Positions 8,500 to 31,939 of a DNA stretch of 64,000 nucleotides are shown here, in pieces. The DNA comes from an uncultured Roseburia sp. (GTDB taxonomy: Bacteria > Bacillota > Clostridia > Lachnospirales > Lachnospiraceae). Made by a program: the position numbers and the translations under genes. The notes under the pieces are model-generated. The model saw nothing but the letters and a program-made list of their open reading frames with translations. It was not told where the DNA came from and did no database searches. The stretch covers positions 1 through 64,000 of the forward strand of contig CANRYS010000016.1 of NCBI GenBank assembly GCA_947644305.1. Reading direction: 5' to 3'. Each line of letters starts with the position of its first letter. Position 1 is the first letter of the stretch.

Positions 8500-8770
8500 A
8501 GCTCGATGGTGCCAATTTGAACCCGTTTCTTAACCAGCTATTTTGTGAATGCGTTCGTTAGTTTCAATCGCCGTAGCCACCGCTACGACTCATTCAACTG
8601 CCTTCGCATTCGCAAAATAACTGGTTTGAAATCTTCGACCGTGTGTGGTGTATTTTGGCGAAGAACAAGGCTAGAGGACGAAGTCTTGCTGACGCAAGAC
8701 AAGGACGAAAAACGAAGTAGTTCGCCAAAATACGCCATTCACGGCGGGTTCAAATTCGCGCCACCGAGCT
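8500..8770. repeat. Structured repeat, long copy A (271 bp)
   Basis: Terminal inverted halves AGCTCGATGGTGCCAATTTG and the matching right end (CAAATTCGCGCCACCGAGCT) pair over about 25 positions. Inside are two arms. Arm 1 (about 8534-8629) is closed by CCAGCTATTTTG/CAAAATAACTGG and contains the hairpin CGTAGCCACCGCTACG. Arm 2 (about 8638-8748) is closed by CCGTGTGTGGTGTATTTTGG against its imperfect complement and contains GTCTTGCTGACGCAAGAC. The core differs from copy B (20414-20684) at only two positions over about 225 bp. The element fills the whole gap between rlmD and the MATE gene. Overlapping open frames are not credible genes. Confidence 0.85.
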
Positions 8771-8799
8771 AGCCTGACGAAAGTCGAACCCGTCAGACT
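8771..8799. repeat. Outer-stem remnant of a copy-B-type element
   Basis: Directly abutting copy A, AGCCTGACG and CGTCAGACT form a short inverted repeat around AAAGTCGAACC. AGCCTGACG and CGAACCC are the ends of the left outer stem of copy B, so this looks like a collapsed element. It overlaps the MATE stop codon at 8793-8795. Confidence 0.5.
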
Positions 8800-10151
8800 C
8801 TCCTGGATTTTTCAGATAATTCTCTCCACACCACACAGATCATTGTCAGGAAACAAGCGAGACCTCCCACTGCATTGGAAACCGGCTCTGCCAGATAGAC
8901 GCCATCCACTCCAAGTCCCCACAGCTTTGGCAGAAGAAGCGTCAATGGCACCACAATGATCACCTTGCGGAACAAGGAGAAAAAAACGGAATATCTGGAT
9001 TTTCCCAGGGCCACAAAGGTAGACTGTCCGGCAAATTGAAATGCCATAAAGAAAAAGCCAAAGAAATACAATTTCAATGCTTCCTTACCCGGTGCTTCCA
9101 TGGCAGGACTATCACTAAACATTCGGATAAATACCCCTGGCTCCACCATAACAAATATCCACACAGCCGTCGTATATAAAAAACCGATAAGAGATGTAAA
9201 CAAGATCGCCTGCTTCACCCTTTTATATTCTCCGGCTCCATAATTAAATCCAAGCACCGGCTGCGCCCCGCTGGTAACGCCCACTATGGCAATATTAGCG
9301 ATCTCCCGTACTGAATTTAAAATGGTCATAACACCGATATATAGATCTCCACCATAAGACTTCAAGGTCACATTGCAGATGATCTGTACGAAACTATTTG
9401 TCACCGCCATGATAAAGCCAGAAGTTCCAAGCCCTACTATTTTTTTGACCAGCGGAAACTCCAGGCGCATACAGGCAGGAACCAACCGGAACAGCGTCCT
9501 CTTTCCCACAAAAAACCTCAGTACTAGAACAGCAGAGACAAACTGTGAGATCACCGTCGCCACCGCCGCCCCCTGTATGCCCATCTGAAAGACAAAGATA
9601 AACAGGGGGTCCAGGGCAATGTTGAGAATGGCGCCGCTCATCACCACCATCATTCCTGTTTTCGGAAATCCCTGGGCGTTGATGAACTGATTCATTCCCG
9701 TTCCCACCATTAAAAAAACCGTACCCAGCAGATAGATCATGAGATATTCCCTGGCATAAGGATATGTCGCCTCGCTGGCCCCGAATAAATACAGGATTTC
9801 CTTTTGAAATAAATAGCCGATGCCCATTAGGATCACCGCCGCTAGAACCAATAAAAAAAAGGTATTATTTAAGATCTGAGAAGCCTTCTTTTCCTCCCCG
9901 GCACCCCTGGCGATAGAAAAAAGAGGGGCGCCTCCCATGGCGAACAGATTTGTAAAAGCGGCTATGATCGATATAATCGGAAATATCAGCCCGATGCCCG
10001 TCAGAGCTTGTCCGTGGGTTCCCGGAAGGTGACCGATATAGATCCGGTCCACTACATTATAAAGCAGCTGGATCAGCTGCGCGATCGTAAGAGGAACTGC
10101 CTGCATCAAAATATGACGGCAGACATTTCCCTTAGAAAAATCATTTTTCAC
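8793..10151 (-). CDS. MATE family multidrug/Na+ antiporter-type exporter
   Basis: A 452-residue integral membrane protein with the twelve-helix MATE layout: an opening ICRHILMQAVPLTIAQLIQLLYNVVDRIYIGHLP, the repeated mid-protein block GTSGFIMAVTNSFVQIICN, and GAQPVLGFNYGAGEYKRVKQA at the start of the second half, all characteristic. It should expel cationic drugs or metabolites using a sodium or proton gradient. The start is a GTG at 10151 with only a weak ribosome site. Its last codons and stop lie in an inverted repeat related to the structured repeat family, which may have reshaped the C-terminus. Substrate is unknown. Confidence 0.85.
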   Translation of the reverse strand: MKNDFSKGNVCRHILMQAVPLTIAQLIQLLYNVVDRIYIGHLPGTHGQALTGIGLIFPIISIIAAFTNLFAMGGAPLFSIARGAGEEKKASQILNNTFFLLVLAAVILMGIGYLFQKEILYLFGASEATYPYAREYLMIYLLGTVFLMVGTGMNQFINAQGFPKTGMMVVMSGAILNIALDPLFIFVFQMGIQGAAVATVISQFVSAVLVLRFFVGKRTLFRLVPACMRLEFPLVKKIVGLGTSGFIMAVTNSFVQIICNVTLKSYGGDLYIGVMTILNSVREIANIAIVGVTSGAQPVLGFNYGAGEYKRVKQAILFTSLIGFLYTTAVWIFVMVEPGVFIRMFSDSPAMEAPGKEALKLYFFGFFFMAFQFAGQSTFVALGKSRYSVFFSLFRKVIIVVPLTLLLPKLWGLGVDGVYLAEPVSNAVGGLACFLTMICVVWRELSEKSRRV

Positions 10152-10229
10152 ATATATCCCGGCTTTCTAACTTGATGTGGTACACGGACCAGTGTGCTGA
10201 CCGGCAAGACCGCCGCCGTAAAACTGCTG

Positions 10230-10574
10230 CTACAGGTTGGAACCATTCCATCCCCAGTCTGGGATCTCCTGATATTTCACATAGATCCGGTTTTTCGGGA
10301 TCGACAGTTCACTTTCAAAGATATCACAGATCACTCCGGTCAGCGCATTGAAGGCAGAGGAAGAAGCCTTTCCATAAATGCTCACCTCAATAAAAGCGCT
10401 CTCCTCTGATCTGTTTCCCTGAAAATACAGGTCGTAGCTATCCTCAAAACCCACCATCAGCCAGTTTTCAGACTTTCCAATGGTAGAAGCTACCGCCTCG
10501 CCCAGCCTGGATTTGATGGCCTCCTTTTTCTCTTCTGTCATCTTAACTGTAACCTTAGAATTAATAAATGGCAT
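10230..10574 (-). CDS. MIF/tautomerase-superfamily protein
   Basis: A 114-residue protein starting MPFINSKVTVKMTEEKK, giving an N-terminal proline after methionine removal, the catalytic base of the tautomerase/macrophage migration inhibitory factor family. The length and later motifs (ENWLMVGFED, FIEVSIYGKASSSAF, IPKNRIYVKYQEIPDWGWNGSNL) fit MIF-like phenylpyruvate tautomerases. AAAGGAG precedes the ATG by seven bases. It is a single-gene unit. The physiological substrate in bacteria is generally unknown, so no pathway is assigned. Confidence 0.85.
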   Translation of the reverse strand: MPFINSKVTVKMTEEKKEAIKSRLGEAVASTIGKSENWLMVGFEDSYDLYFQGNRSEESAFIEVSIYGKASSSAFNALTGVICDIFESELSIPKNRIYVKYQEIPDWGWNGSNL

Positions 10575-10740
10575 AAAATAACTCCTTTCTTAATACATCT
10601 AAAATATGATTTGACCCTAGTATCATAATTTCTGCCTTCACTCACAGATTATTATAGACAATATTCACGGTAAACGCAACCATTTCTCAAGTTTTTCAAA
10701 CACAGTAAATAGTCGGGAAAAACAAATACCTTGAAGATAT

Positions 10741-10769
10741 TTGCTTTTTTTCTAAAAATAAGTTATACT
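10741..10769 (+). promoter_or_regulatory. Sigma-A-type promoter for the DUF1836 gene
   Basis: TTGCTT at 10741-10746 and TATACT at 10764-10769 are separated by 17 bp, about 55 bp upstream of the ATG at 10825. Confidence 0.6.
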
Positions 10770-10824
10770 GTTCTATACGACTATTGAGTACACAGAAGCA
10801 AAAACTGTGAGAAATGGAGTTGTC

Positions 10825-11418
10825 ATGAAAAAGAGCAACGAAGAAAGTATTATGGATATCATCAAAAAACTGAGAGAAATTGATTATATTTCTCCATCGG
10901 ATATTCCAAACATTGATCTGTATATGGATCAGGTCACCACTTTTATGGACGCACATCTAGAAGCCTGTAAAAGAACGGACGAGGATAAGATCCTTACCAA
11001 GACTATGATCAACAATTACACAAAAAACAATCTTCTGCCGCCGCCGGACAAGAAAAAATACTCCAAAGAACATATGTATCTGCTAATCTTTCTCTACTAT
11101 TTTAAAAATGTTCTTTCCATCAGCGACATCCAGAAAATATTTGCTCCTTTGACGCGTATGTTTTTTAATCATGCATCGAAGGATATTTCTCTGGAAAAAA
11201 TATATGAAGAAATTTTTAAAATGGAAAAGGAACAGACCAACAATCTAACCAAAGATGTGGTGCGACGGTTTAAGAGCTCACAGGAGATCTTTTCAGACGC
11301 CACCGACGAGGCAGAATCGGACTATCTATCCCGGTTTGCATATATCTGCATGCTGAGCTTTGACGTCTATATGAAAAAACAGATCATTGAACGCATTATA
11401 GATGAGACACTGCATTAA
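10825..11418 (+). CDS. DUF1836 domain protein, putative transcriptional regulator
   Basis: A 197-residue protein. The N-terminal two thirds match the DUF1836 pattern: YISPSDIPNIDLYMDQVTTF, then ILTKTMINNYTKNNLLPPP and KKYSKEHMYLLIFLYYFKNVLSISDIQKIF. This resembles a MerR-like winged helix in which TKTMINNYTK is the recognition region, so DNA binding is likely but not proven. The upstream ATG at 10807 has no ribosome site, whereas the ATG at 10825 is preceded by GGAG. It is monocistronic with its own promoter at 10741-10769 and converges on the PHP gene, 19 bp away. Confidence 0.75.
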   Translation: MKKSNEESIMDIIKKLREIDYISPSDIPNIDLYMDQVTTFMDAHLEACKRTDEDKILTKTMINNYTKNNLLPPPDKKKYSKEHMYLLIFLYYFKNVLSISDIQKIFAPLTRMFFNHASKDISLEKIYEEIFKMEKEQTNNLTKDVVRRFKSSQEIFSDATDEAESDYLSRFAYICMLSFDVYMKKQIIERIIDETLH

Positions 11419-11437
11419 AAAGCTACCTTATAAAAAA

Positions 11438-12151
11438 CTATATCAGCAGCGCTTTCAATTTTTCCACGGAGGTATTGGCGATCAGTTCTACAGGAAAATC
11501 AACCTCCCGGAGCAGTTCATCTGCATATTCAAAATTCAAAATATCTTCCTCTGTATGCGCATCGCTTCCAACGATAATCGGAACTTCATATTTTTTACAT
11601 AGTTTCAGGATCTGTCGGTCTGCCTCCCTGGCATTTTTCCTGAAACTCGTAGGCGCCAGGGAGGAATTGTTCAATTCTATCAACTTTCCGTATTCTTTTG
11701 CTTCCTGGACTATTTTTTCATGATCGAACTCATACCGGATATCATCTGGATGTCCGATGATATCCACGTGAGGATTCTGTATGGCACCAAGATATGCCCT
11801 GGTATTCTCCTCCGGGCTGCCAGGCTCGATACAACGAACATGTAAACTTGCGATCACCACATCCATCTCCGCCAGCACCCGGTCCGGCAGATCCAGCTTT
11901 CCGTCATGATCCACCACGTTCACTTCTGTCCCAAGCAGCAAGGGAAGCCCGTATTTTTCCCGTCTTGCCACCTTCAGATTCAAAAAATACAGCAGCCCCA
12001 TCGTTCCTGGCATAGAAGGGGCATGGTCCGTAATGCCCAAAAGCTGCAGCCCTTTTTCCTTCGCTGCCAGCGCCATCTCATTCATCGTATTGTAAGCGTG
12101 CCCGCTGGCATAGGTATGGGTATGCAGATCCAGTACATAAATATCTCTCAT
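11438..12151 (-). CDS. PHP-domain phosphatase/hydrolase (YcdX-like)
   Basis: A 237-residue PHP (polymerase and histidinol phosphatase) domain. Metal ligands are visible in LDLHTHTYASGHAY, LLGITDHAP, LLGTEVNVVD, VIASLH, DIIGHPDD and IVGSDAH, the set expected for a trinuclear zinc or manganese site. This composition matches YcdX-type phosphatases rather than HisK or DNA polymerase PHP domains. The open frame extends 24 codons further upstream, but AAAGGAG six bases before the ATG at 12151 (MRDIYVLDLHTHT) sets the start. The substrate is unknown, probably a small phosphorylated metabolite. Confidence 0.8.
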   Translation of the reverse strand: MRDIYVLDLHTHTYASGHAYNTMNEMALAAKEKGLQLLGITDHAPSMPGTMGLLYFLNLKVARREKYGLPLLLGTEVNVVDHDGKLDLPDRVLAEMDVVIASLHVRCIEPGSPEENTRAYLGAIQNPHVDIIGHPDDIRYEFDHEKIVQEAKEYGKLIELNNSSLAPTSFRKNAREADRQILKLCKKYEVPIIVGSDAHTEEDILNFEYADELLREVDFPVELIANTSVEKLKALLI

Positions 12152-12246
12152 GATTTTCTCCTTTTTTTCGCACAAAAGAACTGTAGTTTTTACAATGTTT
12201 ATGGCAAACAGCAGGTGGCACAAACATTTTCGTGACTAAAAACACC

Positions 12247-12329
12247 GGGCTGGTCTCATCTCCGATTCGGTCCGTGCTTAACAAGCGCCACTGGCGCTTA
12301 GCACCGCTGCTACGCAGCTTTACCAGCCC
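12247..12329. repeat. Cloverleaf-like inverted repeat element
   Basis: GGGCTGGT (12247-12254) pairs with ACCAGCCC (12322-12329). Inside lie the hairpin AAGCGCCACTGGCGCTT, flanked by GTGCT and AGCAC, and a second hairpin GCTGCTACGCAGC. It occupies the 358-bp gap between the PHP gene and pcrA together with the pcrA promoter. No coding potential is seen. Only one copy occurs in the window. Confidence 0.5.
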
Positions 12330-12443
12330 TCCACCATTCGGAACTCCCGCACTGCTTATCATATTGCTCCGTTTCTCATGATTTTGCTCATTGTTTTAGT
12401 CACACTTCACAATACCATTTTCCCCAAAAAATTTCAATAGTTA

Positions 12444-12472
12444 TTGTCTTTTGTCCCTGACTATGTTATAAT
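12444..12472 (+). promoter_or_regulatory. Sigma-A promoter of pcrA
   Basis: TTGTCT (12444-12449), a 17-bp spacer and a perfect TATAAT (12467-12472) lie 37 bp upstream of the pcrA start codon. Confidence 0.75.
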
Positions 12473-12509
12473 GAACGTATGTTTGTCGCAGTATGAAGGA
12501 GGAAATGAT

Positions 12510-14789
12510 ATGTCGACTATTTTAGACCATTTAAATGATAAACAGGAGGAAGCTGTCCTTCACTTTGAGGGCCCTCTTCTGATCCTTGCAGGAGCAGGTT
12601 CTGGCAAGACCCGGGTTCTCACCCACCGCATCGCCTATCTGATCGAAGAACATCAAGTCAATCCCTGGCAGATTCTGGCGCTGACCTTTACCAACAAGGC
12701 AGCCAGCGAGATGCGGGAACGAGTGGATCATATCGTCTCCTACGGCGCCGAAAGTATCTGGGTTAGCACTTTTCACTCCACCTGTGTGCGAATCCTGCGC
12801 CGGTACATAGACCTTATTGGGTATAGCCGCAGTTTTACCATCTATGATACCGACGACCAGAAAAGTCTAATGAAGGATATCTGCAAACACCTGAATATAG
12901 ACACGAAAAAATTTAAAGAGAAGACCTTTCTGAATGCGATCTCCAACGCAAAAAACGAGCTAAAAACGCCGGAACAGTTTGCCGAAGAGACAGAGAAAGA
13001 ATATAACCGCAAGATCTTTGGCACGGTGTATAAAGAATACCAGAAACGTCTGAAACAGAACAACGCCCTGGATTTTGACGACCTGATCATGAAGACCGTG
13101 GAACTTTTCAAAGACCAGCCACAGGTACTAGAACACTACCAGAACCGTTTCCGTTTTATTCTGGTGGACGAGTACCAGGATACCAACACCGCCCAGTTTA
13201 TGCTTCTCAGCCTTCTTGCCTCCCGCTACCGGAATCTCTGTGTGGTGGGGGATGATGACCAGTCCATTTATAAATTCCGGGGAGCCAATATCTATAATAT
13301 ATTAAATTTTGAAGAAATATTTCCAGAGGCAAAAACCATCCGTCTGGAGCAGAATTACCGCTCTACGAAACGGATCCTGGAGGCTGCCAACGAAGTGATT
13401 CGCCACAACACCGCCAGAAAAGAAAAAGCTCTGTGGACCAAGGCAGAAGAAGGCGATCCGATCCGCTATGTGCAGTATATGAATGAGTATGAGGAAGCAG
13501 CCGGCATCGCCGGGGACATCCATAACGACATCCGGGAAAATGGCAGCAGCTATTCGGATTTCGCCGTACTCTACCGCACCAATGCCCAGTCTCGGGTCTT
13601 TGAGGAAAAACTGGTACAGGAAAATATCCCCTACCGGATTGTAGGCGCCATCAACTTCTATTCCCGAAAGGAGATCAAAGATCTTCTCTGTTATCTGAAG
13701 ACCATCCATAATCCAGAGGATGATATCGCCGTCCGAAGGATCATTAATGTTCCCCGCAGGGGCATCGGCGCCACGACGATCCAGCGGGTGACAGACTATA
13801 GCCTGGACCGAGGCATCAGCTTTTTTGCCGCCCTGCGGGAAGCCGATTACATCGATGGGTGCAGTCGCGCCGCTTCCCGGATCCATGATTTTGTCAGCTT
13901 TATCGACCTGTTGAAAAGCCGCCAGGAAGAGCCGGACTTTTCCCTTCGCGGGCTGATGGATGAAATTCTTGAATGCACAGGCTATGTCAAAGATCTAGAG
14001 GCAGAAGATACCGTGGAGGCAAACGCCCGCCTGGAAAATATCGACTCCTTCATCAATAAGATCATCCAATATGAGACAGATGCCTCCAATGATCCCGCCG
14101 GCGAATCAGCCACCCTGGGCGGTCTTTTGGAAAACATCGCTCTGGTAGCCGATATCGACACCGTTGATCCTGACACAGAACAGGTTCTGTTGATGACGCT
14201 GCACAGTGCCAAGGGACTGGAATTTCCCAAGGTATACATATGCGGCATGGAAGAAAATATTTTTCCTGGTTCCATCGCTGTGTACGATCCTTCCGATGAT
14301 GAGATGGAAGAAGAACGCCGCCTGTTCTATGTGGGGATCACCCGGGCCCAAAAACAACTGACACTGACCTGTGCTAGACAGCGTATGCGCAACGGAGAAC
14401 CAAATTTTAATTTTCCATCCCGCTTTATCAGTGAGATCCCTCGTTATCTCATACAGCAGACCGAGGGCGAAAAAACGCATCGTTCTTCCTCCACATACGA
14501 CAGGGTGGCGGGACTGGACGACATCTTCTCCCCGGCAAAAAAATACAACAAACACTCCAAAAATCCCTTTGCCGACAATCCCTATATAAAAAAGGGGGCT
14601 TCCTCTCTTTCTGCCCCTGCTGGTAAACCGGAATATAGCGAGGGAGATACTGTCTATCATATCAAATTCGGTACGGGGAAGGTGCTTTCATTGACAAAGT
14701 TGAGTACGGATTATGAGGTTGTGGTGGAATTTAAAGATTTTGGTCAGAGAAAACTTCGTAGTTCCTTCGCAAAACTTTCCAAAATTTAA
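12510..14789 (+). CDS. pcrA: ATP-dependent DNA helicase PcrA/UvrD
   Basis: A 759-residue superfamily 1A 3'-5' helicase. The motifs are in order: Q motif LNDKQEEAV, Walker A GAGSGKT, Ia TFTNKAASEM, II VDEYQDTN, III GDDDQSIYKFRGA, IV RLEQNYRS, V LMTLHSAKGLEFP and VI EERRLFYVGITRA. A C-terminal extension (about 650-759) ends in the Tudor-like YSEGDTVYHIKFGTGKVLSL segment that in PcrA contacts RNA polymerase. Function: nucleotide excision and mismatch repair, clearing of protein roadblocks and plasmid replication. GGAGG lies eight bases before the ATG at 12510, preferred over the longer frame from 12444, which starts inside the promoter. Confidence 0.95.
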   Translation: MSTILDHLNDKQEEAVLHFEGPLLILAGAGSGKTRVLTHRIAYLIEEHQVNPWQILALTFTNKAASEMRERVDHIVSYGAESIWVSTFHSTCVRILRRYIDLIGYSRSFTIYDTDDQKSLMKDICKHLNIDTKKFKEKTFLNAISNAKNELKTPEQFAEETEKEYNRKIFGTVYKEYQKRLKQNNALDFDDLIMKTVELFKDQPQVLEHYQNRFRFILVDEYQDTNTAQFMLLSLLASRYRNLCVVGDDDQSIYKFRGANIYNILNFEEIFPEAKTIRLEQNYRSTKRILEAANEVIRHNTARKEKALWTKAEEGDPIRYVQYMNEYEEAAGIAGDIHNDIRENGSSYSDFAVLYRTNAQSRVFEEKLVQENIPYRIVGAINFYSRKEIKDLLCYLKTIHNPEDDIAVRRIINVPRRGIGATTIQRVTDYSLDRGISFFAALREADYIDGCSRAASRIHDFVSFIDLLKSRQEEPDFSLRGLMDEILECTGYVKDLEAEDTVEANARLENIDSFINKIIQYETDASNDPAGESATLGGLLENIALVADIDTVDPDTEQVLLMTLHSAKGLEFPKVYICGMEENIFPGSIAVYDPSDDEMEEERRLFYVGITRAQKQLTLTCARQRMRNGEPNFNFPSRFISEIPRYLIQQTEGEKTHRSSSTYDRVAGLDDIFSPAKKYNKHSKNPFADNPYIKKGASSLSAPAGKPEYSEGDTVYHIKFGTGKVLSLTKLSTDYEVVVEFKDFGQRKLRSSFAKLSKI

Positions 14790-14869
14790 AAAATTAACTA
14801 GTATATTTTACATAGATATGTTATACTATTAATAGATATTGAACATGAAGGAAAGGATGGTAGTGATAT

Positions 14870-20358: not shown

Positions 20359-20872
20359 AGCTGTATTGGTTTCTGGTGACACGCTGCTGTCACATTTGCA
20401 TGCATAGGCATGCAGCCTGACGGTGCCAAATCGAACCCGTTTCTTAATCAGCTATTTTGTAAATGCGTTCGTTAGTTTCAATCGCCGTAGCCACCGCTAC
20501 GACTCATTCAACTGCCTTCGCATTCGCAAAATAACTGGTTTGAAATCTTCGACCGTGTGTGGTGTATTTTGGCGAAGAACAAGGCTAGAGGACGAAGTCT
20601 TGCTGACGCAAGACAAGGACGAAAAACGAAGTAGTTCGCCAAAATACGCCATTCACGGCGGGTTCGATTTGGTATCGTCAGGCTAAGCAGAATTAATAGG
20701 GAAGCCGGTTCGATTCCGGCACAGCCCCCGCTGCCGTATTTGAGGATGCCGATAACAGGATCGAAATGCTATTCTTGCATTCGGTCAGCCACTGGAACAG
20801 CCCGACGGGCACTATTATCTGGGAAGGCGTTATCTGCAGTTGATGCATAAGTCGGAAGACCTGCCATACAGT
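20359..20872 (+). promoter_or_regulatory. Cobalamin riboswitch, interrupted by a structured repeat
   Basis: The conserved core is clear: GGGAAGCCGG and CCGGCACAGCCCCCGCTGCC (20699-20735), the B12 box AGCCACTGG (about 20787-20795), GGGAAGG (20821-20827) and AGTCGGAAGACCTGCC (20850-20865). The closing stem is CTGTAT (20361-20366) with ATACAG (20866-20871). The 5' peripheral arm, closed by TTCTG (20371-20375) and CAGAA (20688-20692), holds two small hairpins and the 271-bp repeat copy B (20414-20684). Without the repeat the aptamer is about 243 nt, a normal size. A -10 TATAAT lies at 20328-20333. A terminator at 20989-21026 implies control by premature termination. Confidence 0.9.
20414..20684. 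repeat. Structured repeat, long copy B (271 bp), inside the riboswitch
   Basis: Same length and almost the same core as copy A (8500-8770), with two core substitutions seen. The outer stem differs: AGCCTGACGGTGCCAAATCG pairs with the right end CGATTTGGTATCGTCAGGCT nearly throughout, while copy A uses the AGCTCG/CGAGCT version. Left and right ends therefore changed together. The insertion lies in the optional peripheral arm of the cobalamin aptamer and leaves its conserved core intact. Confidence 0.85.
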
Positions 20873-20988
20873 CTGAAATATAACCTTTCGGAGGGAGAGG
20901 AAATGTTTTGACAGCGTTAGGCTAAGAACTTGTCCAATAGTGTGATCACAATTGGTCTGTTTTTGTTGCACAAGTATTGTCATTACTG

Positions 20989-24790: not shown

Positions 24791-25792
24791 TTATTTAGTC
24801 TTCGGTGCTTTGCTGGCAAATTCTGTGTTCACCAGTTCTTCATAGGAAACCCGGCTGCTGAGCTCTCCACCGGATTCCAGAATATCCTGCAAAAGCTCAA
24901 AACTCTCCTTTTCAAAGACAAGATTGTCTTTCCAGGTCCCCTGGTCATAATATCGCTCTACGATAGTAGTCAACGTTTCTCGCTCCGTCTCTTTGAACTG
25001 GGGCTGTATCACCTCCGCGATTTCCTGCGGCGTGTGGCTTTTTACAAAATCCATCCCCTTCTGGAGAGCGTTGGTAAACTTCTGAATGGTATCCGCATTT
25101 TTCTTGATATAACTTTCCTTGGCAGAATAGGCAGTATAGGGAACCATTCCGCTATCCACTCCGAGAGAAGCTACCACCACACCTTTCTTCTCTTTTTCCA
25201 GAGAAGCTGCAAAGGGTTCAAATTCCACCGAGTAATCCCCCTGTCCTGAAGCAAAAGCTTCTGCGGTAAGTCCAAAGTCGATATTCTGTACCATCTTCAG
25301 ATCCTTCTGAGGATCTATGTTATTCTTCTTTAGTATGTATTCAAATACCATCTGCGGCATACCGCCCTTCCTTCCTGCCAGTACTGTCTTTCCTTTCAGT
25401 TTATCCCAGGTAAAAGCTTCATCGGCTTTCCTTGCCACCAGAAAATTACCGGCGCGCTGTGTCAACTGGGCAAAGTTGATAATCTTTTCTCCCGATCCCT
25501 CATTAAATACATAGATCGATGCCTCCGATCCCATAAATCCAATGTCAGCCTCCCCTGACAACACCGCTGTCATCACATTGTCGGCGCCGGAACCATTGAC
25601 CAGTTTTACATCCAACCCTTCCTCTTTAAAATAACCTTTCTCAATAGCTACATACTGGGGAGCATAGAAAATGGAATGCGCCACTTCATTCAGTGTGATG
25701 GACGTCATCCCTTCCTCCTCCTTTTTTGCACAGCTACACAGAGAAAGTACCAGTAGAGAAAAAATCAGCGCCAGAACCACGATTTTTTTCAT
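24791..25792 (-). CDS. NMT1/SsuA-like substrate-binding lipoprotein
   Basis: A 333-residue periplasmic-binding-type lipoprotein. The signal ends in the lipobox LCSC (lipidated Cys about residue 20), followed by ITLNEVAHSIFYAPQYVAIEKGYFKEEGLDVKLVNGSGADNVMTAVLSGEADIGFMG, the hallmark of the NMT1/THI5 and SsuA family that binds thiamine precursors, sulfonates or nitrate. No permease or ATPase gene is adjacent, so it is an orphan here. A thiamine cluster lies about 2 kb away, which makes a thiamine-precursor ligand possible but not shown. The AGGAGG site directly abuts a repeat-derived hairpin (25804-25821). Confidence 0.8.
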   Translation of the reverse strand: MKKIVVLALIFSLLVLSLCSCAKKEEEGMTSITLNEVAHSIFYAPQYVAIEKGYFKEEGLDVKLVNGSGADNVMTAVLSGEADIGFMGSEASIYVFNEGSGEKIINFAQLTQRAGNFLVARKADEAFTWDKLKGKTVLAGRKGGMPQMVFEYILKKNNIDPQKDLKMVQNIDFGLTAEAFASGQGDYSVEFEPFAASLEKEKKGVVVASLGVDSGMVPYTAYSAKESYIKKNADTIQKFTNALQKGMDFVKSHTPQEIAEVIQPQFKETERETLTTIVERYYDQGTWKDNLVFEKESFELLQDILESGGELSSRVSYEELVNTEFASKAPKTK

Positions 25793-25803
25793 TCTCTTCC
25801 TCC

Positions 25804-25821
25804 TAGCTCGATGGCGAGCTA
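25804..25821. repeat. Outer-stem remnant of the structured repeat
   Basis: TAGCTCG and CGAGCTA form a perfect seven-base stem around ATGG, matching the outermost bases of copies A and C. It lies immediately upstream of the ribosome binding site of the lipoprotein gene on the minus strand. Confidence 0.5.
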
Positions 25822-25918
25822 TTTCCTTTTTCTATGAATATATGACAAAAAATACGTGTGGTGCAGGTCTTTTTGTGTTAAAATAGAAGCAAAAGATGAA
25901 TTGAGGGAGGGTACTTAG

Positions 25919-26635
25919 ATGAATGAAATAGAACAATTGAAACAATGGATCGATGAAAGTAATAATATCGTATTTTTTGGCGGCGCCGGCGTCTCCACAG
26001 AGAGTCATATTCCAGATTTTCGCAGCGTGGACGGACTGTATAACCAGAAGTATGATTTCCCGCCAGAGACGATTTTAAGCCACCGTTTTTTCATACAGAA
26101 TACGGAGGAATTTTATCGTTTTTACTGGGATAAAATGATCTTTGAAGCTGCTGAGCCAAATCCAGCCCACACAGCGCTGGCAAATCTTGAAAAAATGGGC
26201 AAACTCAAAGCTGTCATTACCCAAAACATCGATGGTCTGCACCAGAAAGCAGGAAGCAAGGAAGTTCTGGAACTTCACGGATCTGTCCTGCGCAATTACT
26301 GCATGAACTGCCAAAAGTTTTATGAGTTAAAAGATATTCTCCCGCAAAAGGGAGTTCCCAAATGCAGTTGTGGCGGCACCATCAAGCCGGATGTGGTGCT
26401 CTATGAAGAGGGGCTGGATTCTGATATTTTGGAAAAATCCATCACTTATATCAGAAATGCAGAAGTTTTGATCATAGGGGGCACTTCTCTAGCCGTCTAT
26501 CCTGCCGCCGGTCTGATCGACTACTATCGGGGAAATAAACTGGTTCTGATCAACAAATCCAGGACCAGCCGCGATGCCCACGCAAACTTAGAGATCCATG
26601 GGGCGATCGGAGATACCTTAGGCTTTTATGCTTGA
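25919..26635 (+). CDS. cobB: Sir2-family NAD-dependent protein deacylase
   Basis: A 238-residue sirtuin. NAD-binding GAGVSTESHIPDFRS (about 21-35), catalytic TQNIDGLH, and the active-site histidine in ELHGS are intact. Zinc ligands are CMNC and CSCGG. IGGTSLAVYPAAGL and LVLINKS complete the Rossmann fold. It removes acetyl or other acyl groups from lysines using NAD. A strong GAGGGAGGG ribosome site stands seven bases before the ATG. It is followed 119 bp later by metA on the same strand. The symbol is given by family, as the acyl preference (acetyl versus succinyl/malonyl) cannot be read with certainty. Confidence 0.9.
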   Translation: MNEIEQLKQWIDESNNIVFFGGAGVSTESHIPDFRSVDGLYNQKYDFPPETILSHRFFIQNTEEFYRFYWDKMIFEAAEPNPAHTALANLEKMGKLKAVITQNIDGLHQKAGSKEVLELHGSVLRNYCMNCQKFYELKDILPQKGVPKCSCGGTIKPDVVLYEEGLDSDILEKSITYIRNAEVLIIGGTSLAVYPAAGLIDYYRGNKLVLINKSRTSRDAHANLEIHGAIGDTLGFYA

Positions 26636-26754
26636 AAGTACAATTTATTTGTGATAGACTTACTCATGAAAGTTTGTTTAAAAAATACCTTCAACATGAG
26701 CTACATGACATAGCAAAGGAAAACATCGTTACCTTTGCAGAAATGAGGAAAATT

Positions 26755-27669
26755 ATGCCGATCAAGATTCCCAACTCTCTACCAGCGACAGAGATACTGG
26801 AAAATGAAAATATATTTGTGATGACGGAACATCGTGCTATGCATCAGGATATCCGTCCTTTAAGCGTACTCATCCTAAATCTGATGCCCACTAAGATCGT
26901 GACAGAAACTCAACTGCTGCGCAAGTTATCGAACACCCCGTTGCAGATTGAAGTGGAGTTTTTAAAGACCGCCAGTTATATTCCGCAGCACACAGATCCT
27001 ACTCATCTGGATACCTTCTACACGACCTTTGATGAAGTCAAGGAACGTAAATTTGACGGTATGATCATCACGGGAGCACCACTGGATTACATTGCCTTTG
27101 AGGATGTGGGATATTGGAAGGAAGTGTGCCGGATCATGGAGTGGTGTAAAACCCATGTCCACTCCACCCTTCATCTTTGCTGGGGAGCCTTTGCCGCCCT
27201 GTATTATTACTATGGCATTGAAAAAATAGATCTTCCCAAGAAATTTTCAGGTGTTTATGAACACACCGTTGTAAAGAAAAATTCCCCCCTGTTCCGTGGC
27301 TTTGATGATATCTTCTACGCACCACAATCCCGCGCTACCAGCGTGAATTCGGAGGACATTTTGGCAGTGGATGAACTTGAGCTGATGGCAGTCTCGGAAG
27401 AAGCCGGCGCTACAATCATAAAAACTACGGACAGCCGGCATTTCTTCATGACCTGTCACCCAGAATACGACGCTGATACCCTGGCCAAGGAATATTTTAG
27501 GGATGTGGAAAAGGGGCTGAATCCAAACATTCCATGCAACTATTTTCCCGATGATGATCCGTCCCAGTCACCAATCGTGCGCTGGCGCTCCACTGGGCAG
27601 CTAATCTTTTCTAACTGGCTGAATTATTACGTATACCAAAGTACACCTTACGATATTACTGACGTATAG
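26755..27669 (+). CDS. metA: Homoserine O-acyltransferase MetA
   Basis: A 304-residue MetA, the normal length. It starts MPIKIPNSLPATEILENENI with GAGG six bases upstream; a longer frame reaches back to a TTG at 26632, overlapping the Sir2 stop, but lacks a ribosome site. The catalytic Cys142 lies in HLCWGAFAALYYYYGI and the His-Glu pair in TCHPEYD. The residue that decides acyl-CoA choice (position 111, Gly for succinyl and Glu for acetyl in studied enzymes) is Asp here, in TGAPLDYIAFEDV. An acidic residue should disfavour succinyl-CoA, so acetyl transfer is more likely. It catalyses the first step of methionine synthesis from homoserine. Confidence 0.9.
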   Translation: MPIKIPNSLPATEILENENIFVMTEHRAMHQDIRPLSVLILNLMPTKIVTETQLLRKLSNTPLQIEVEFLKTASYIPQHTDPTHLDTFYTTFDEVKERKFDGMIITGAPLDYIAFEDVGYWKEVCRIMEWCKTHVHSTLHLCWGAFAALYYYYGIEKIDLPKKFSGVYEHTVVKKNSPLFRGFDDIFYAPQSRATSVNSEDILAVDELELMAVSEEAGATIIKTTDSRHFFMTCHPEYDADTLAKEYFRDVEKGLNPNIPCNYFPDDDPSQSPIVRWRSTGQLIFSNWLNYYVYQSTPYDITDV

Positions 27670-28258
27670 TCATAAATCCAGACATCACACACACTCCTGC
27701 CGCGCCGGCCTGCACGACAGATGCCGCGTTTTCCCGACAGATGCCGCCGATGCCATAGACAGGGATGTGCACACCCCCGGATACTTCTTGAATAAACTCC
27801 AGTCCTCGGCCTGGCATCCCTTTTTTGCAGTCAGTTTCGAACACATGACCGGCGATCACATAATCTGCCCCCAATTCCTCTGCCCTCTTTGCCTGTTCGA
27901 TCGAATGTACAGAAGATCCAATCTTCTGAAAATAATTCCTCACCCCATTGGGCAAAGTTTCAAGAATCCCTAGGGGAAGATGAATGTTCTGACAGTGCAG
28001 CTTCCTGGCACTCTCCCAGAAGTTGTGAAAAATACATGTCATATCAGCCTCCTGACAGATCCGCTGTACATTTTCCGCCATCTTCTCATATTCACTCTGC
28101 GAAAGATCTTTTTCTCTCAAAAGAATGGCGTCCGCTTCCCTCTTCTGAGCGATCTGCCAGATTCTCTCATAAAAATTTCCCTGACACAGTTTCCTATTGG
28201 TGACACACAGACACGGAATCTTATCACTGCTACTTGTCTTATACATAAATATAGTCAC
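27656..28258 (-). CDS. thiE: Thiamine phosphate synthase family protein (ThiE/TenI)
   Basis: A 200-residue TIM-barrel protein. LCVTNRKL, DAILLREKDLS (the diphosphate-loop region R-E-K-D-L), IHLPLG, GSSVHSIEQAKRAEELGADYVIAGHVFETDCKKGMPGRG and VYGIGGI match ThiE and TenI. ThiE joins the pyrimidine and thiazole halves of thiamine. The family also includes TenI thiazole tautomerases, and the placement directly after thiSGH fits either. It overlaps thiH by 20 bp, with no clear ribosome site, so coupling is likely; GTG at 28258 or ATG at 28246 may be the start. The 3' end overlaps metA convergently by 14 bp. Confidence 0.75.
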   Translation of the reverse strand: MTIFMYKTSSSDKIPCLCVTNRKLCQGNFYERIWQIAQKREADAILLREKDLSQSEYEKMAENVQRICQEADMTCIFHNFWESARKLHCQNIHLPLGILETLPNGVRNYFQKIGSSVHSIEQAKRAEELGADYVIAGHVFETDCKKGMPGRGLEFIQEVSGGVHIPVYGIGGICRENAASVVQAGAAGVCVMSGFMTIRQ

Positions 28259-29444
28259 TCATTACCGGCTGCAGCCCATGATTGCGGATCGCCTGGTACA
28301 CCTCTTCCACCGTCCTCGTGTCGTCGATCTCAAACTGTTCATCGCCCTTTTCCTCTCCACCCCGGCCTCCTATGCCAACATTGACACCGGCAGAAATCTT
28401 GGTAGCAGCGATTTGGATCAGATGATCCCTCACCCTCTCACACTCCCTAGTGGAAACAGTTATATTAGAAAATGGCAGGAACAGCCGGTAGGCACACACA
28501 ACCTGAAGCAACTGCGCCTCATGAACATCCATGGGATTGATCTTGTCATTGTTAATGATTGGACGCAGTCTCGGACAGGAAAATGCAATCTCTGCATGAG
28601 GATATTTTCGCTGAATATACCACGCATGCATGCCCGTGGCAAAGGCATCACGCCTGAAATCATCCAGTCCCAACAACGCCGCAAATCCCACGCCCCGCAT
28701 TCCTCCCCTGACTGCCCTTTCTTGGGCATTTAGACGATAGGGGAAAATCCGTTTTCTTCCCGCCAGATGAAGCGCCTCATACTTATCGGAATGATAGGTC
28801 TCCTGAAATACCGTGACATAATCGGCGCCGCACTCATGAAGATATTGATACTCCTCAGAATTCACCGGATATATCTCCAGACCGATCACCTTGAAATATT
28901 TCCGGGCAATCTTACATGCCTCCCCGATGTATCTGACATCCGACATCTTCGGGCTCTCTCCCGTCAGAATCAAAACCTCCTGGAGACCCGTTTTAGCGAT
29001 CTCCTGCATCTCCTGTTCAATTTCTCCCATATTCAGTCTGGCACGTTTGATGTTATTGTGGCAGTTGAAGCCGCAGTAAATACAATAGTTCTCACAATGA
29101 TTTGCTATGTAGAGGGGTGTAAACATAGCGATGGAATTTCCAAAATGTTTTCTTGTCTCCACCTGTGCTGCCTGGGCAATCTCCTCCAAAAGAGGAAGAG
29201 CCGCTGGAGAAAGCAGCGCCGCAAATTCCTCCGGTCCTTTCCTGTCATGGTTAAGGGCATTTTTAACATCCGCCGCCGTGTAACGCTCACAATCAAATGC
29301 TTCCTCCGCTTTAATTACCAATTGATCAATCTCCGAATCTAGAACCTCCATGCCCTCTAGATAGGTCATATGATCTGTCCTGTTTTCTTTTAGATGTTCT
29401 TTGATCTCTTCGTTCAAAATACTTTCATTGATTCTCTCTGTCAT
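28239..29444 (-). CDS. thiH: 2-Iminoacetate synthase ThiH (radical SAM tyrosine lyase)
   Basis: A 401-residue radical SAM enzyme that cleaves tyrosine to dehydroglycine and p-cresol for the thiamine thiazole ring in anaerobes. The cluster motif is CENYCIYCGF (about residues 115-125). TGESPKMSDVRYIGEA, LEIYPVNSEEYQYLHECGADYVTVFQETYH and a conserved C-terminal VGIGGRGGEEKGDEQFEIDD are family features. The frame is open 11 codons further, but AAAGG before the ATG at 29444 (MTERINESIL) decides the start. It sits 16 bp downstream of thiG. Confidence 0.93.
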   Translation of the reverse strand: MTERINESILNEEIKEHLKENRTDHMTYLEGMEVLDSEIDQLVIKAEEAFDCERYTAADVKNALNHDRKGPEEFAALLSPAALPLLEEIAQAAQVETRKHFGNSIAMFTPLYIANHCENYCIYCGFNCHNNIKRARLNMGEIEQEMQEIAKTGLQEVLILTGESPKMSDVRYIGEACKIARKYFKVIGLEIYPVNSEEYQYLHECGADYVTVFQETYHSDKYEALHLAGRKRIFPYRLNAQERAVRGGMRGVGFAALLGLDDFRRDAFATGMHAWYIQRKYPHAEIAFSCPRLRPIINNDKINPMDVHEAQLLQVVCAYRLFLPFSNITVSTRECERVRDHLIQIAATKISAGVNVGIGGRGGEEKGDEQFEIDDTRTVEEVYQAIRNHGLQPVMSDYIYV

Positions 29445-29460
29445 TTTTCCTTTTCTCCAT

Positions 29461-30243
29461 TTATGTATTGCTTCCATCCTGAATATATCCTGTCAGCGGA
29501 GATGAGGCACTTCCTCCCCTTTCCAGCACTCTTCCTGTACCAGCAAGATAGGCGGTCCGCCCGGCCTCGATCGCCTTACGAAATGCCTCTGCCATGGCAG
29601 GGATATCTCCTGCTGTGGCAATTCCCGTATTTGCCATCACGGCAGCCGCTCCCATCTCCATCGCCTCGCACGCCTGGGAGGGACATCCAATCCCCGCATC
29701 CACGATAATAGGAAGGTCAATCTCATCGATCAATATCTGAATAAATTCTTTTGTACACAATCCCTTATTGGAACCAATGGGCGCAGCCAGAGGCATCACG
29801 GAAGCGGCCCCCGCATTATACAGATCTCTTGCTATATTCAAATCGGGATACATATAGGGCATCACCACAAATCCTTCTTTTGCAAGAATCTCCGTCGCTT
29901 TCACAGTCTCCTGATTGTCCGGCAGAAGATATTTGCTGTCCCTCATGATCTCAATTTTCACAAAATCACCACAGCCTATCTCTCTGGACAGCCTAGCGAT
30001 GCGGACAGCCTCTTCCGCATTTCTAGCACCTGAAGTATTGGGAAGCAGTGTGACCCCCTCTGGTATATAATCCATAATATTTGCCGTCCCCCCGGCATTT
30101 GCCCGTCGCAGGGCAAGAGTGATGATCTGCGCCCCTGCCTGTTCAACGGCAGCCTGGATCAGATCCAGCGAATATTTTCCAGAGCCAAGTATAAACCGGG
30201 AAGTAAATTCATGCCCTCCCAAAACCAGCATATCATGATTCAT
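29461..30243 (-). CDS. thiG: Thiazole synthase ThiG
   Basis: A 260-residue TIM-barrel enzyme that assembles thiazole phosphate from deoxyxylulose phosphate, dehydroglycine and the ThiS thiocarboxylate. [15 protein letters not shown], the Schiff-base lysine region [22 protein letters not shown] and [29 protein letters not shown] are diagnostic. It lies between thiS and thiH in the usual order. The spacing to thiS is 76 bp, enough for a processing site but with nothing specific visible. ThiF, the ThiS-activating enzyme, is not encoded in the window. Confidence 0.95.
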
Positions 30244-30319
30244 TCTTATCCTCTCCTCATCTTTCTGTTCTTAACATCATCCAAATTCTTCGCAACTTAC
30301 GTGTTCCAAATACAAAAGA

Positions 30320-30517
30320 TCAGCCTCCTCCTACAAAACTCACCACCTCGACTTTGTCTCCACTCTTCACCCTTTTTTCATTGTAAATTGATTTGGAAAC
30401 GATCTCCCCATTGATTTCTACCGCGATCTTACGGCTATCATAGCCTTCTCGCTTTAAAAGTTCCGTTAGAAAGAGATCTGAATACTGCTCTTTTACTTTT
30501 CCATTTAGTATAATCAT
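30320..30517 (-). CDS. thiS: Sulfur carrier protein ThiS
   Basis: A 65-residue ubiquitin-fold protein ending VEVVSFVGGG; the C-terminal glycine is adenylated and converted to a thiocarboxylate that supplies sulfur for thiazole. The N-terminus MIILNGKVKEQYSDLFLTEL and IAVEINGEIVSKSIY are typical. AAAGGAGG lies before the ATG. It heads thiSGHE. No TPP riboswitch could be found upstream; instead the leader contains a tandem hairpin array (30535-30741). Confidence 0.92.
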   Translation of the reverse strand: MIILNGKVKEQYSDLFLTELLKREGYDSRKIAVEINGEIVSKSIYNEKRVKSGDKVEVVSFVGGG

Positions 30518-30534
30518 GGTGTCCTCCTTTCTTG

Positions 30535-30741
30535 CAGCGCTTCACTTCTGTGACTGGTCGCGGCATTCGCCGCATACCTTATTCCCTTTCGCCTCGCACC
30601 AGTCACAGCGCTTCGCTTCTGTGACCGGTCGCGGCATTCGCCGCATATCTTGTTCCCTTTCGCCTCGCACCAGTCACAGCGCTTCGCTTCTGTGACCGGT
30701 CGCGGCATTCGCCGCATACTCTGTAAAACATACCGGTCACA
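30535..30741. repeat. Tandem 71-bp hairpin repeats in the thi leader
   Basis: Three copies with a period of 71 bp begin at 30535, 30606 and 30677, the last diverging at its end. Each carries CAGCGCTTC, then GTGAC(C/T)GGT paired with ACC(A/G)GTCAC, and an inner hairpin GCGGCATTCGCCGC. The copies are nearly identical, indicating recent expansion. Frames through the array shift because 71 is not a multiple of three, so no protein is likely. The 447-bp gap 30518-30964 otherwise holds the hairpin at 30804-30860. Confidence 0.85.
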
Positions 30742-30803
30742 TCGTGCAAGCACATGTGACCATATGTTTTCAGAGTGCGAGGCTCAAAGCAAACGCGCAA
30801 AAA

Positions 30804-30860
30804 GAGGATAGCACATGAAAGCTACACCCGTGGTGGTGTACCCCTTCATGAGATATCCTC
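30804..30860 (-). terminator. Three-segment hairpin with U-run, terminator or attenuator
   Basis: TACACC/GGTGTA, CATGAA/TTCATG and GAGGATA/TATCCTC stack in one stem around the loop CGTGGT. On the minus strand the stem is followed by five T residues (30803-30799). It lies 100 bp beyond the end of the broken Rpn gene and 280 bp before thiS, so it may end the former or attenuate the latter. Confidence 0.6.
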
Positions 30861-30964
30861 AATCTTTTAGTATCTTATCATAAATATCTGAGATTGTCAA
30901 TTCAACACAACATAAATTAAACTATTTTATGTCAAACGCAATCTAATCGTTTATTTTTTATGTA

Positions 30965-31939
30965 CTATATTCCATATTCCTCCATTAACTTTCCCTGCAA
31001 AAGAAGATCCTTTGCCGCCATTAAGATTTCTTCTGTTCTGCCGTCCTCAGCCAGTCGAACATTTAAATAATTTATTCGTTCTGCTGCTTCTTCTCTTCCT
31101 TCTGCCAGCAGCTCTTCTGCAAATTCACACATATGCCTCACACCTTTCTCTTCTTCTTTTAAATAAGCCACTCTTTTTCTTAGCTCGACGGTGCCAATTT
31201 GAACCCTGTTTCGTACTGCGCTAGCAACAAAATAGCATTGTTGCTTTCATTCGATGATGCCACCACATCACCTCATTCAAGCGCCTTGCTATTTTGCTGC
31301 TATCACAAGTCGGAGGCAGAGTTCAAATTAGCGCCATCGAGCTAAATTCACAAATTTTTCTTTATACGGCGCATAATCTGTTGTTGTATTTTTTATATAT
31401 TTTAACAGTGCAGTCTGCTCCGCTTTCGACGCAGGAAAAGCTAAATTAGAGTAAATCTCATGAACTCCATTTGATATCTCCCGGTTTGTGCCCTTTATCA
31501 TACGCACAATCTCAGAACATCCCGACTGTGTATTTAAAAAATCCTTTTCTGTGATAAAAATTAGATACAAGTCTGGCAAGTCCGCATAACTGGCACCCGT
31601 TCCTAGCACCCGGCTGTCGATCCGACTCTGTATAAATCGTGAACGTTTCAGATGATCCTCATCCTCCGCTATCTGAAGTTCAATATTATACTGTCTCTCT
31701 TGAGAGTCCTCTGCCCAGACATCAAGTATCGAGCTATGACCATATAAATTCCGGTAACTTCGTTGGGGTTCCGTGCGCAACACCCGCAGATCAGAGATTC
31801 CTGTTAAAATCCGCAGTACATCCTGCACAGCCAAATGATCCTCAAACACTATGGAGGAAAACAAATCACTGGTCAGGTTCAGTTCTCGTATCTTTGCCAG
31901 ACGATCTTTGTAGTTTTTTATTCCCACCCGTTTTGTCAA
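30965..31939 (-). pseudogene. Rpn/PD-(D/E)XK transposase-like nuclease gene split by a structured repeat
   Basis: The N-terminal part (31939 to 31346, 198 codons) has the PD-(D/E)XK nuclease family pattern: FSSIVFEDHLAVQDVLRILTG, LDVWAEDSQERQYNIELQ (Asp and Glu-x-Gln active site), RSRFIQSRIDSRVLG and LLKYIKNTTTDYAPYKEKFVN. The C-terminal part (31180 to 30965) reads RKRVAYLKEEEKGVRHMCEFAEELL and onward, the usual end of such proteins. Between them are 165 nt holding repeat copy C, which introduces an early stop (after LARWR). Because 165 is a multiple of three, removing it gives one 269-residue frame. The start is a TTG with AAGGGG upstream. Family members promote recombination or are found near mobile DNA. 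Confidence 0.8.
31182..31343. repeat. Structured repeat, short copy C (162 bp)
   Basis: Outer ends AGCTCGACGGTGCCAATTTG and CAAATTAGCGCCATCGAGCT pair and match copy A. The interior keeps only arm 1: TAGCAACAAAATAGCA pairs imperfectly with TGCTATTTTGCTGCTA. The inner hairpin is TGATGCCACCACATCA where copies A and B have CGTAGCCACCGCTACG, a covarying stem with a conserved CCACC loop; TTTCA and CTCATTCAA around it are also shared. Arm 2 is absent. No direct target duplication is evident. Confidence 0.8.

What the first reader, a model, noticed from the sequence alone, without database searches (positions are those of the whole stretch)
8500..31343. A family of long, branched, foldable repeats with compensatory changes
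Seen: copies A (8500-8770) and B (20414-20684) are both 271 bp, with two differences noted in about 225 bp of core. Their outer stems differ (AGCTCG/CGAGCT against AGCCTGAC/GTCAGGCT; TTTGAACCC/GGGTTCAAA against ATCGAACCC/GGGTTCGAT), yet each pairs with itself. Short copy C (31182-31343) has the A-type outer stem and only the first arm; its inner hairpin TGATG-CCACC-ACATCA replaces CGTAG-CCACC-GCTACG. Paired changes with a fixed CCACC loop imply selection on, or replication through, a folded single strand. Inference: a structured RNA or single-strand-mobilised element not matching any family I know.
Basis: partly seen in the sequence, partly recalled or inferred. Interest (0 to 1): 0.8.

Follow-up and report, generated by a model that had tools for sequence, protein, structure and literature searches.

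The report
Mobile folding DNA hairpin in clostridia
The repeats are copies of a small mobile DNA hairpin without genes, found patchily in many relatives of gut clostridia; its central fold has been kept while its letters changed, which suggests that an unknown machine recognises the folded strand.

Summary
A and B are 271 bp, differing at 2 of 221 core but 15 of 50 outer-stem positions. A and C fold far below shuffles; all three match one covariance model. They belong to a non-coding, MITE-like palindrome family inserting at TA. The unit is a ~160-bp hairpin, often CTAG-ended, around a ~50-nt core with tandem G.A pairs. Type-2 two-arm elements carry two cores in opposite orientation; copy C lost an arm that a relative keeps at the same site. 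The model finds 34 of 392 genomes of the order and 15 of 398 of the phylum. Helices covary, and G.T exceeds A.C 74 to 16 on one strand, so that strand is kept foldable. Rfam (window, 16 loci), phage, plasmid and viral-contig searches found no relative. No longer element with the same ends was found in six genomes. A nuclease-like gene of no named family lies within 343 bp of 7 of 126 element places, a candidate partner. I infer that the folded core, as RNA or single-stranded DNA, is recognised in trans; this is unproven.

The parts
8500..8770 (.). Copy A: two-arm (Y-shaped) element, type 1, ends T|AGCTCG...CGAGCT|A
8500..8524 (+). Copy A outer stem, left half
8746..8770 (+). Copy A outer stem, right half
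8541..8618 (-). Copy A arm 1: conserved tandem-G.A core (model R1, 87.3 bits, E 3.6e-22)
8653..8729 (+). Copy A arm 2: weak, possibly degenerate second core in opposite orientation (8.3 bits, E 0.11 in a 501-base search)
8771..8799 (.). AGCCTGACGAAAGTCGAACCCGTCAGACT: core-less remnant of a B-type palindrome abutting copy A
20414..20684 (.). Copy B: two-arm element, type-1 core in the AGCCTGAC-type outer stem, just upstream of and overlapping the Rfam hit to a cobalamin riboswitch
20455..20532 (-). Copy B arm 1 core (88.3 bits, E 1.8e-22)
31182..31343 (.). Copy C: type-2 element that lost arm 2; lies in the 3' part of an Rpn-family nuclease gene read on the minus strand
31224..31301 (-). Copy C arm 1 core (79.2 bits, E 7.3e-20)

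Best explanation
SHOWN: A, B and C are copies of a non-coding mobile palindrome family that inserts between T and A (equivalently with a TA duplication). The unit is a ~160-bp hairpin around a conserved ~50-nt core. Type-2 two-arm elements carry two cores in opposite orientation, and C is a deletion derivative. SHOWN: one strand (the minus strand of arm 1 in the window) is the strand kept foldable, with conserved tandem G.A pairs and covarying helices. INFERRED: because the terminal stems differ in sequence between lineages while their self-pairing, usual length and core are kept, copies are mobilised in trans by a machine that recognises the folded core as RNA or single-stranded DNA, rather than by a transposase reading one fixed terminal sequence. 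A candidate for part of that machine is a small PD-(D/E)XK-like nuclease encoded beside the element in some carriers. Type-1 arm 2 as a degenerate second core is a weaker inference.
For: Mobility: exact removal reopens a reading frame with at least 60 codons on each side in 11 of 33 copies, against 2 and 3 of 33 when 1 or 2 further bases are removed. One insertion splits a subtilase domain: the two pieces, searched apart, match profile 2-96 and 105-288, and a relative has that site empty. Butyrivibrio LC3010 has near-identical copies; subfamilies of about 84-96% identity exist within single genomes. Core and strand: A1, 44 sequences, 15 of 20 pairs with changes on both sides, covariation score 0.538 against 0.184 shuffled and at most 0.102 slid. 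A4, 48 other rows from the order and phylum, 20 of 20 pairs, 0.605 against 0.214 and at most 0.129. Tandem G.A pairs are kept (45, 46, 46 and 40 of 48 rows) while the U.U between them is GC in 10, CG in 4 and UA in 2 rows. The GA strand folds better in 55 of 57 elements with RNA and 52 of 57 with DNA parameters. G.T:A.C is 74:16 in stems, 46:14 outside the model. Length 160-163 bp in 57 of 89 TA-anchored elements (counted). Cores in opposite orientation: 5 loci, 4. Partner gene: all 7 homologue places found among the held loci lie within 343 bp of a core; chance for one gene is 0.138 in a 12-kb window, 7e-6 for six.
Against: No mobilising enzyme is proven. The nuclease gene stands beside only 7 of 126 places, in genomes of two genera (g26, g48), two of them (L346, L347) orthologous; the windows were chosen for the element; one copy (L351) is broken; no homologue was seen in about 1.0 Mb of the 3.19-Mb own genome; two homologue-bearing phage records show no convincing core. 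TA-ended palindromic MITEs driven by ordinary transposases are common, and transposases could have diverged with the stems. The GA strand lies opposite the local majority gene strand in 73 of 107, which does not favour a co-transcribed RNA; in the genome contigs subset alone that bias is not significant (24 of 37, p 0.10). R1-based sampling favours sequences that pair. Type-1 arm 2 matches only weakly. Single-hairpin units show no frame restoration: 12 of 89 against 17 and 11 in shifted controls. One solitary terminal end in Butyrivibrio (L392) was not explained.
Confidence: 0.66

Rival explanations
1. Ordinary MITEs: a TA-specific DDE transposase (IS630/Tc1-like or similar) recognises the terminal repeats in trans, and the core is a passenger.
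For: TA at both ends, terminal inverted repeats, small size and dispersed copies. PMC2229807 (passages) lists TA termini for Correia, ERIC and RUP, and links RUP to IS630-Spn1.
Against: No DDE_3 match in the own genome. Terminal-repeat patterns returned no facing pair 300-5000 bp apart in the own genome, in four genomes with the CTAGTGTACTG type (positions only, unpaired matches not inspected) or in Butyrivibrio LC3010; contig ends limit this. A passenger interior should not keep a covarying core across many families. Other DDE families were not searched.
Confidence: 0.3
2. A structured RNA that acts after transcription (RNase processing, RNA stability, protein decoy) and is merely carried around by transposition.
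For: Tandem G.A motif, G.T tolerance on one strand and better RNA folding. Precedents in ERIC, Correia and BOX RNAs (passages).
Against: Neighbouring genes are mixed: the only close recurrent family that is not the element itself, a genome-specific repeat or a small set of three is the nuclease-like gene at 7 of 126 places. The folded strand is mostly antisense to local genes.
Confidence: 0.25
3. Elements merely tend to insert beside the nuclease-like gene (for example at its 3' end), and the gene has no part in their movement.
For: In 5 of 7 places the core lies next to the gene's 3' end (L344, L346, L347, L351, L355), in 2 near its 5' end (L341, L345); most element places lack the gene.
Against: Three separate homologues in one genome (G169) each have a core beside them.
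Confidence: 0.45
4. Compensatory changes come from palindrome self-correction (template switching during replication), not selection.
For: Long palindromes; core-less and one-arm deletion forms at orthologous sites; a chimera joined at the hairpin tip (L388).
Against: Correction should also turn the conserved G.A mismatches into Watson-Crick pairs and would not favour G.T over A.C on one strand.
Confidence: 0.08

Closest known systems
TA-ended bacterial MITEs: ERIC, Correia/NEMIS, RUP
   Same: Small, non-coding, dispersed, terminal inverted repeats, TA at the ends, strongly folding (PMC2229807, passages).
   Different: Here the core carries conserved tandem G.A pairs with covarying helices and occurs patchily across many families; no driving IS was found.
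BOX elements of Streptococcus pneumoniae
   Same: Modular, mobile, strongly folded repeats with expressed copies reported (PMC3049150, passages).
   Different: The passages place BOX mainly in S. pneumoniae, S. mitis and S. suis. Sequence relation to BOX was not tested.
CIR repeats of Caulobacter
   Same: Two hairpin arms, with a conserved motif exposed in one (PMC2229807, passages).
   Different: CIR has a methylation motif and a linker between arms; here an outer stem closes two arms.
REP/REPIN elements with RAYT (Y1) transposases
   Same: Palindromes in inverted pairs moved in trans, with a cognate enzyme gene beside some copies (recalled).
   Different: A genome with copies lacks a Y1 transposase (G633); no core within 23 Y1 loci. 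The gene beside some copies here is nuclease-like, not Y1.
Integron attC sites
   Same: Function depends on a folded single strand with conserved unpaired bases (recalled).
   Different: Integrase and cassettes were not searched; terminal stems and TA ends differ.

Membership tests
MITE (general) | Terminal inverted repeats, small size, no coding capacity | tested here: met
MITE (general) | Target-site duplication | tested here: inconclusive
   28 of 33 two-arm and short elements are flanked by T and A (counted); exact removal restores frames in 11 of 33; one empty site of equal length with one substitution beside the junction; TA duplication and T^A insertion give the same sequence
MITE (general) | Autonomous relative with the same ends | tested here: not met
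   Pattern searches in the own genome, four further genomes and Butyrivibrio LC3010; six genomes only
IS630/Tc1-derived MITE (such as RUP) | IS630-type transposase (DDE_3) in the same genome | tested here: not met
   0 matches in the own genome
REP/REPIN with RAYT | Y1 transposase in host genomes, with repeats beside it | tested here: not met
   Y1 in 5 of 6 genomes, absent from G633; 0 core matches in 23 Y1 loci
Any Rfam family | Covariance-model match | tested here: not met
   Window at gathering threshold and 16 loci at permissive E: no match over the elements except the cobalamin riboswitch that copy B's end overlaps
Cobalamin riboswitch (beside copy B) | Rfam match | tested here: met
   20653-20882, 80.3 bits: a neighbour overlapping B's last 32 bases, not the element itself
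PD-(D/E)XK / Holliday-junction-resolvase-like nuclease (the gene beside 7 places) | Family match | tested here: inconclusive
   One of four members scanned matches PHROG 9019 'Holliday junction resolvase' at E 6.8e-6; no Pfam match above its cut-off in five members scanned, no convincing NCBIfam match in four, no solved-structure match. The PD-(D/E)XK reading of the invariant PDFT...EH motif is recalled
Integron attC | Integron integrase and cassette array | not tested
   no search made
ISfinder-listed IS end | Match to a catalogued terminal repeat | not testable with these tools
   ISfinder not available; copy A and element L251 have no match in plasmids or phages

The most novel reading that the evidence does not exclude
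A class of mobile element, spread over many families of clostridia and relatives, whose identity lies in a folded tandem-G.A core: a trans-acting enzyme, perhaps the Holliday-junction-resolvase-like nuclease encoded beside some copies, recognises the folded strand (RNA or single-stranded DNA) and inserts it at TA, so that terminal sequences are free to drift as long as they pair.
Probability: 0.4. Interest if true: 0.88.

Novelty: new variant of a known kind. Interest (0 to 1): 0.72.

Why it matters
Bacterial MITEs are usually treated as end-to-end leftovers of insertion sequences. A mobile element without genes whose core fold is kept across many families would point to an unrecognised structure-reading mobilisation system or to a widespread untyped RNA. 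This gives a covariance model, a length rule, a strand and a candidate enzyme for experiments, and explains recurrent repeats, gene interruptions and contig breaks in gut Lachnospiraceae.

Tried and rejected
Rejected: RAYT-driven REPs. An Rpn-nuclease link suggested by copy C: tblastn of the window's Rpn protein found only copy C's own region (L368) and its ortholog L143 among 162 loci. A cis-regulatory element of one common gene class: neighbours are mixed. Phage or plasmid origin: 0 viral contigs stretches for three exact patterns, no phage or plasmid match for copy A or L251. Literature: no paper on this repeat appeared in seven searches (listings with abstract starts; passages read only in PMC3049150, PMC2229807 and PMC10969869). 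PMC8040213 (abstract start only) predicts thousands of candidate RNAs in human microbiomes and could hold it unnamed.

One search showed one close recurrent family (8 ORFs, 7 places). The other close clusters there are the element or its two-arm form itself, repeats within one genome, or small sets (for example DegV and peptidase M23).

Led nowhere: a first hairpin-end finder was too permissive and was replaced; a first strand count mixed in two-arm elements and was replaced. Hairpins on the other side of the nuclease-like gene exist in some loci but carry no core match. No relative of the gene in viral contigs; four weak plasmid hits to AAA-ATPase genes, 37-41% coverage; two phage records.

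Limits: searches of more than 40 genomes used stricter filters, and searches scored only 11-12 candidates per genome, so copy numbers are lower bounds. The pattern fixed part of the core, so those letters are conserved by construction; AAGGC, the 3-bp helix and AAC were not in it. Strand counts treat copies as independent, which related copies are not. Rows dropped: of 89 hits, 84 were used (4 second arms and 1 weak hit dropped); 5 two-arm loci were then left out; of 71 hits, 47 were used, 41 (five Blautia rows and L154 also dropped) and 42. Searches kept 57 distinct elements of 150-185 bp out of 84 rows. A4 is 48 hand-picked rows, 44 of them. The 33 copies were picked for having both ends.
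Full report
CHECK. A and B differ at 2 of 221 core and 15 of 50 outer-stem positions and each outer stem pairs with itself. A and C fold far below shuffled sequence (z -13.6 and -9.1). Rfam finds only a cobalamin riboswitch at 20653-20882, overlapping the last 32 bases of B. The own genome holds 7 near full-length A-like places and 16 places matching at least 110 of the 162 bases of C, plus core-less solo palindromes such as G000:C1:324576-324609.

ANATOMY. Comparison of types 1 and 2, and then of relatives, shows stems that change and unpaired motifs that stay. Read on the strand I call the GA strand (minus strand of arm 1 in the window), the core is AAGGC, a 3-bp helix, UGAAUGAG, a 7-8-bp helix, GGUG, the return helix, CGAUUGAA, the return 3-bp helix, and AAC. 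UGAAUGAG/CGAUUGAA can form tandem G.A/A.G pairs on either side of A-U and U.U. In far relatives two of the three pairs of the 3-bp helix are mostly G.A/A.G as well.

COVARIATION. Alignment A1 (44 sequences): 90.3% of cells paired, 15 of 20 pairs with changes on both sides, score 0.538 against 0.184 in shuffles (0 of 500 as high) and at most 0.102 slid. Alignment A4 (48 rows, MAFFT, drawn from model hits): 85.2%, 20 of 20 pairs, 0.605 against 0.214 and at most 0.129. The G.A positions hold in 45, 46, 46 and 40 of 48 rows, while the U.U between them is GC in 10, CG in 4 and UA in 2. A4 rows were found by a model that rewards pairing, which inflates the paired percentage.

WHICH STRAND FOLDS. The GA strand has the lower energy in 55 of 57 elements with RNA and 52 of 57 with DNA parameters. 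Isolated non-Watson-Crick positions in stems are G.T 74 against A.C 16 (elements 42 to 5); outside the 78-nt model still 46 to 14 (elements 27 to 7, p 0.0008). So the GA strand is the one kept foldable. This asymmetry, and the persistence of G.A mismatches, speak against mere palindrome correction. In the 25-bp outer stems of 30 two-arm and short elements there is no clear bias (CCACC strand: A.C 29, G.T 21), which would fit stems that close two cores facing opposite ways.

TWO ARMS. Five type-2 loci give model hits in both arms on opposite strands (L122, L140, L143, L146, L164), as do four loci of genus g48 (L322, L323, L324, L350). Arm 2 of A gives only a weak match in that arrangement (8.3 bits, E 0.11). 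Copy C lost arm 2: in L143, from a close relative, the same site holds the two-arm form, and by eye the missing stretch lies between short direct repeats. At another orthologous site G004 has a 237-bp element where the own genome has a solo palindrome (L089 and L065).

MOBILITY. Of 33 two-arm and short elements, 28 are flanked by T on the left and A on the right (counted). Exact removal opens frames of at least 60 codons on both sides in 11 of 33, against 2 and 3 with shifted joins. One copy splits a subtilase domain at profile 96/105, and the relative L122 has that site empty at equal length, with one substitution beside the junction. Copy C interrupts an Rpn-family nuclease gene. TA duplication and clean T^A insertion cannot be told apart. 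Single-hairpin units: of 120 examined, 89 had TA-anchored ends (TA was required by the search); 44 of 89 have CTAG at both ends and 57 of 89 are 160-163 bp; frame restoration is not seen for them (12 of 89 against 17 and 11). An end finder that did not require TA called 32 of 84 rows clear, with TA near both ends in 22.

DISTRIBUTION. An exact pattern gave 62 stretches in named genome contigs, whose titles name Blautia schinkii, Butyrivibrio, Lachnospira, Dorea, Roseburia, Acetatifactor, Lachnoclostridium, Eubacterium, higher groups of Clostridia, or only 'bacterium', and 0 viral stretches. The model finds 34 of 392 genomes in the order, 15 of 398 in the phylum and 11 of 82 in the class of G811; these counts include the own genome or the centre and overlap. 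Presence is patchy within genera, as for a mobile element. The phylum is not named by the tools; from the named contigs I take it to be Bacillota in the wide sense (recalled). No other phylum was searched.

WHAT MOVES IT. Terminal-repeat patterns gave no facing pair 300-5000 bp apart in the own genome, four further genomes or Butyrivibrio LC3010. The own genome lacks DDE_3. Y1 transposases are missing from one carrier, and none of 23 Y1 loci has a core. The GA strand lies opposite the local majority gene strand in 73 of 107 and opposite the G-rich strand in 78 of 120 single-hairpin elements (p 0.0002 and 0.001, copies treated as independent; the genome contigs subset alone is not significant, p 0.10 and 0.18). 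This could reflect insertion into single-stranded DNA, or selection against sense copies.

A CANDIDATE PARTNER. Clustering of genes around 126 element places, looked at again, shows one close recurrent family: 8 ORFs at 7 places (L341, L344, L345 in G169; L346 in G098; L347 in G061; L351 in G353, broken; L355 in G318), each within 343 bp of a core. A profile of six of them finds no homologue elsewhere in the loci then held. By chance one gene would lie so close in 0.138 of 12-kb windows, six independent ones in 7e-6, though the windows were chosen for the element. The six unbroken proteins (265-329 aa) share an invariant PDFT...EH region that I read, from recall, as PD-(D/E)XK-like; one member matches a PHROG named Holliday junction resolvase at E 6.8e-6, while Pfam, NCBIfam and solved structures give nothing convincing. 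No homologue was seen in about 1.0 Mb of the own genome, and two phage records with homologues show no convincing core. It may be the cognate enzyme, as RAYT genes stand beside REPs (recalled), or a favoured insertion neighbourhood.

CONCLUSION AND KNOWN KINDS. From drifting but self-pairing ends, a usual length and a fixed core, I infer recognition of the folded core in trans; enzyme and nucleic acid are not shown. It resembles TA-ended MITEs such as ERIC, Correia and RUP (PMC2229807 passages) and modular BOX repeats (PMC3049150 passages), but no driving IS was found and the covarying core is unusual. I call it a new variant of a known kind; the bolder reading is given as the novel case.

Noticed in passing
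L341, L344, L345, L346, L347, L351, L355 (genes within 343 bp of the core at 6001-6078): An unnamed gene family, one member matching a Holliday-junction-resolvase PHROG, stands beside the element; three separate copies in one genome (G169).
   Followed up: partly
20414-20882: Copy B abuts and overlaps the start of the Rfam match to a cobalamin riboswitch; in relative G001 (L095) the same site holds an internally deleted remnant of the element.
   Followed up: partly
8771-8799: A core-less B-type palindrome remnant sits directly after copy A; elements abut each other at a shared TA or CTAG elsewhere too (for example L157, L162, L123).
   Followed up: partly
L005 1501-1771 and L046 1501-1776 (G000:C19:32002-33796): Two elements, in opposite orientation, interrupt what looks like one long gene with cellulose-binding and VWA domains; both frames reopen on exact removal.
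   Followed up: partly
L388 from position ~1501: In Butyrivibrio LC3010 a hairpin is a chimera: left half of one element family, right half of another, joined at the tip; misassembly is not excluded.
   Followed up: no
L392 from position ~1501: A solitary terminal end (about 29 bases of the Butyrivibrio type) is followed by unrelated sequence, with no partner end found on that contig.
   Followed up: no
L240 1723-1916: A T-box leader match (below its gathering score) lies roughly 100-150 bases from an element.
   Followed up: no
G000 contig ends (C4, C26, C25, C35, C23): Several contigs of the own genome end inside type-2 copies, so the repeat breaks the assembly and true copy number is probably higher.
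   Followed up: no
L126 6136-6168: Weak match to Acido-Lenti-1 RNA (27.1 bits, below its gathering score of 37), away from the element.
   Followed up: no
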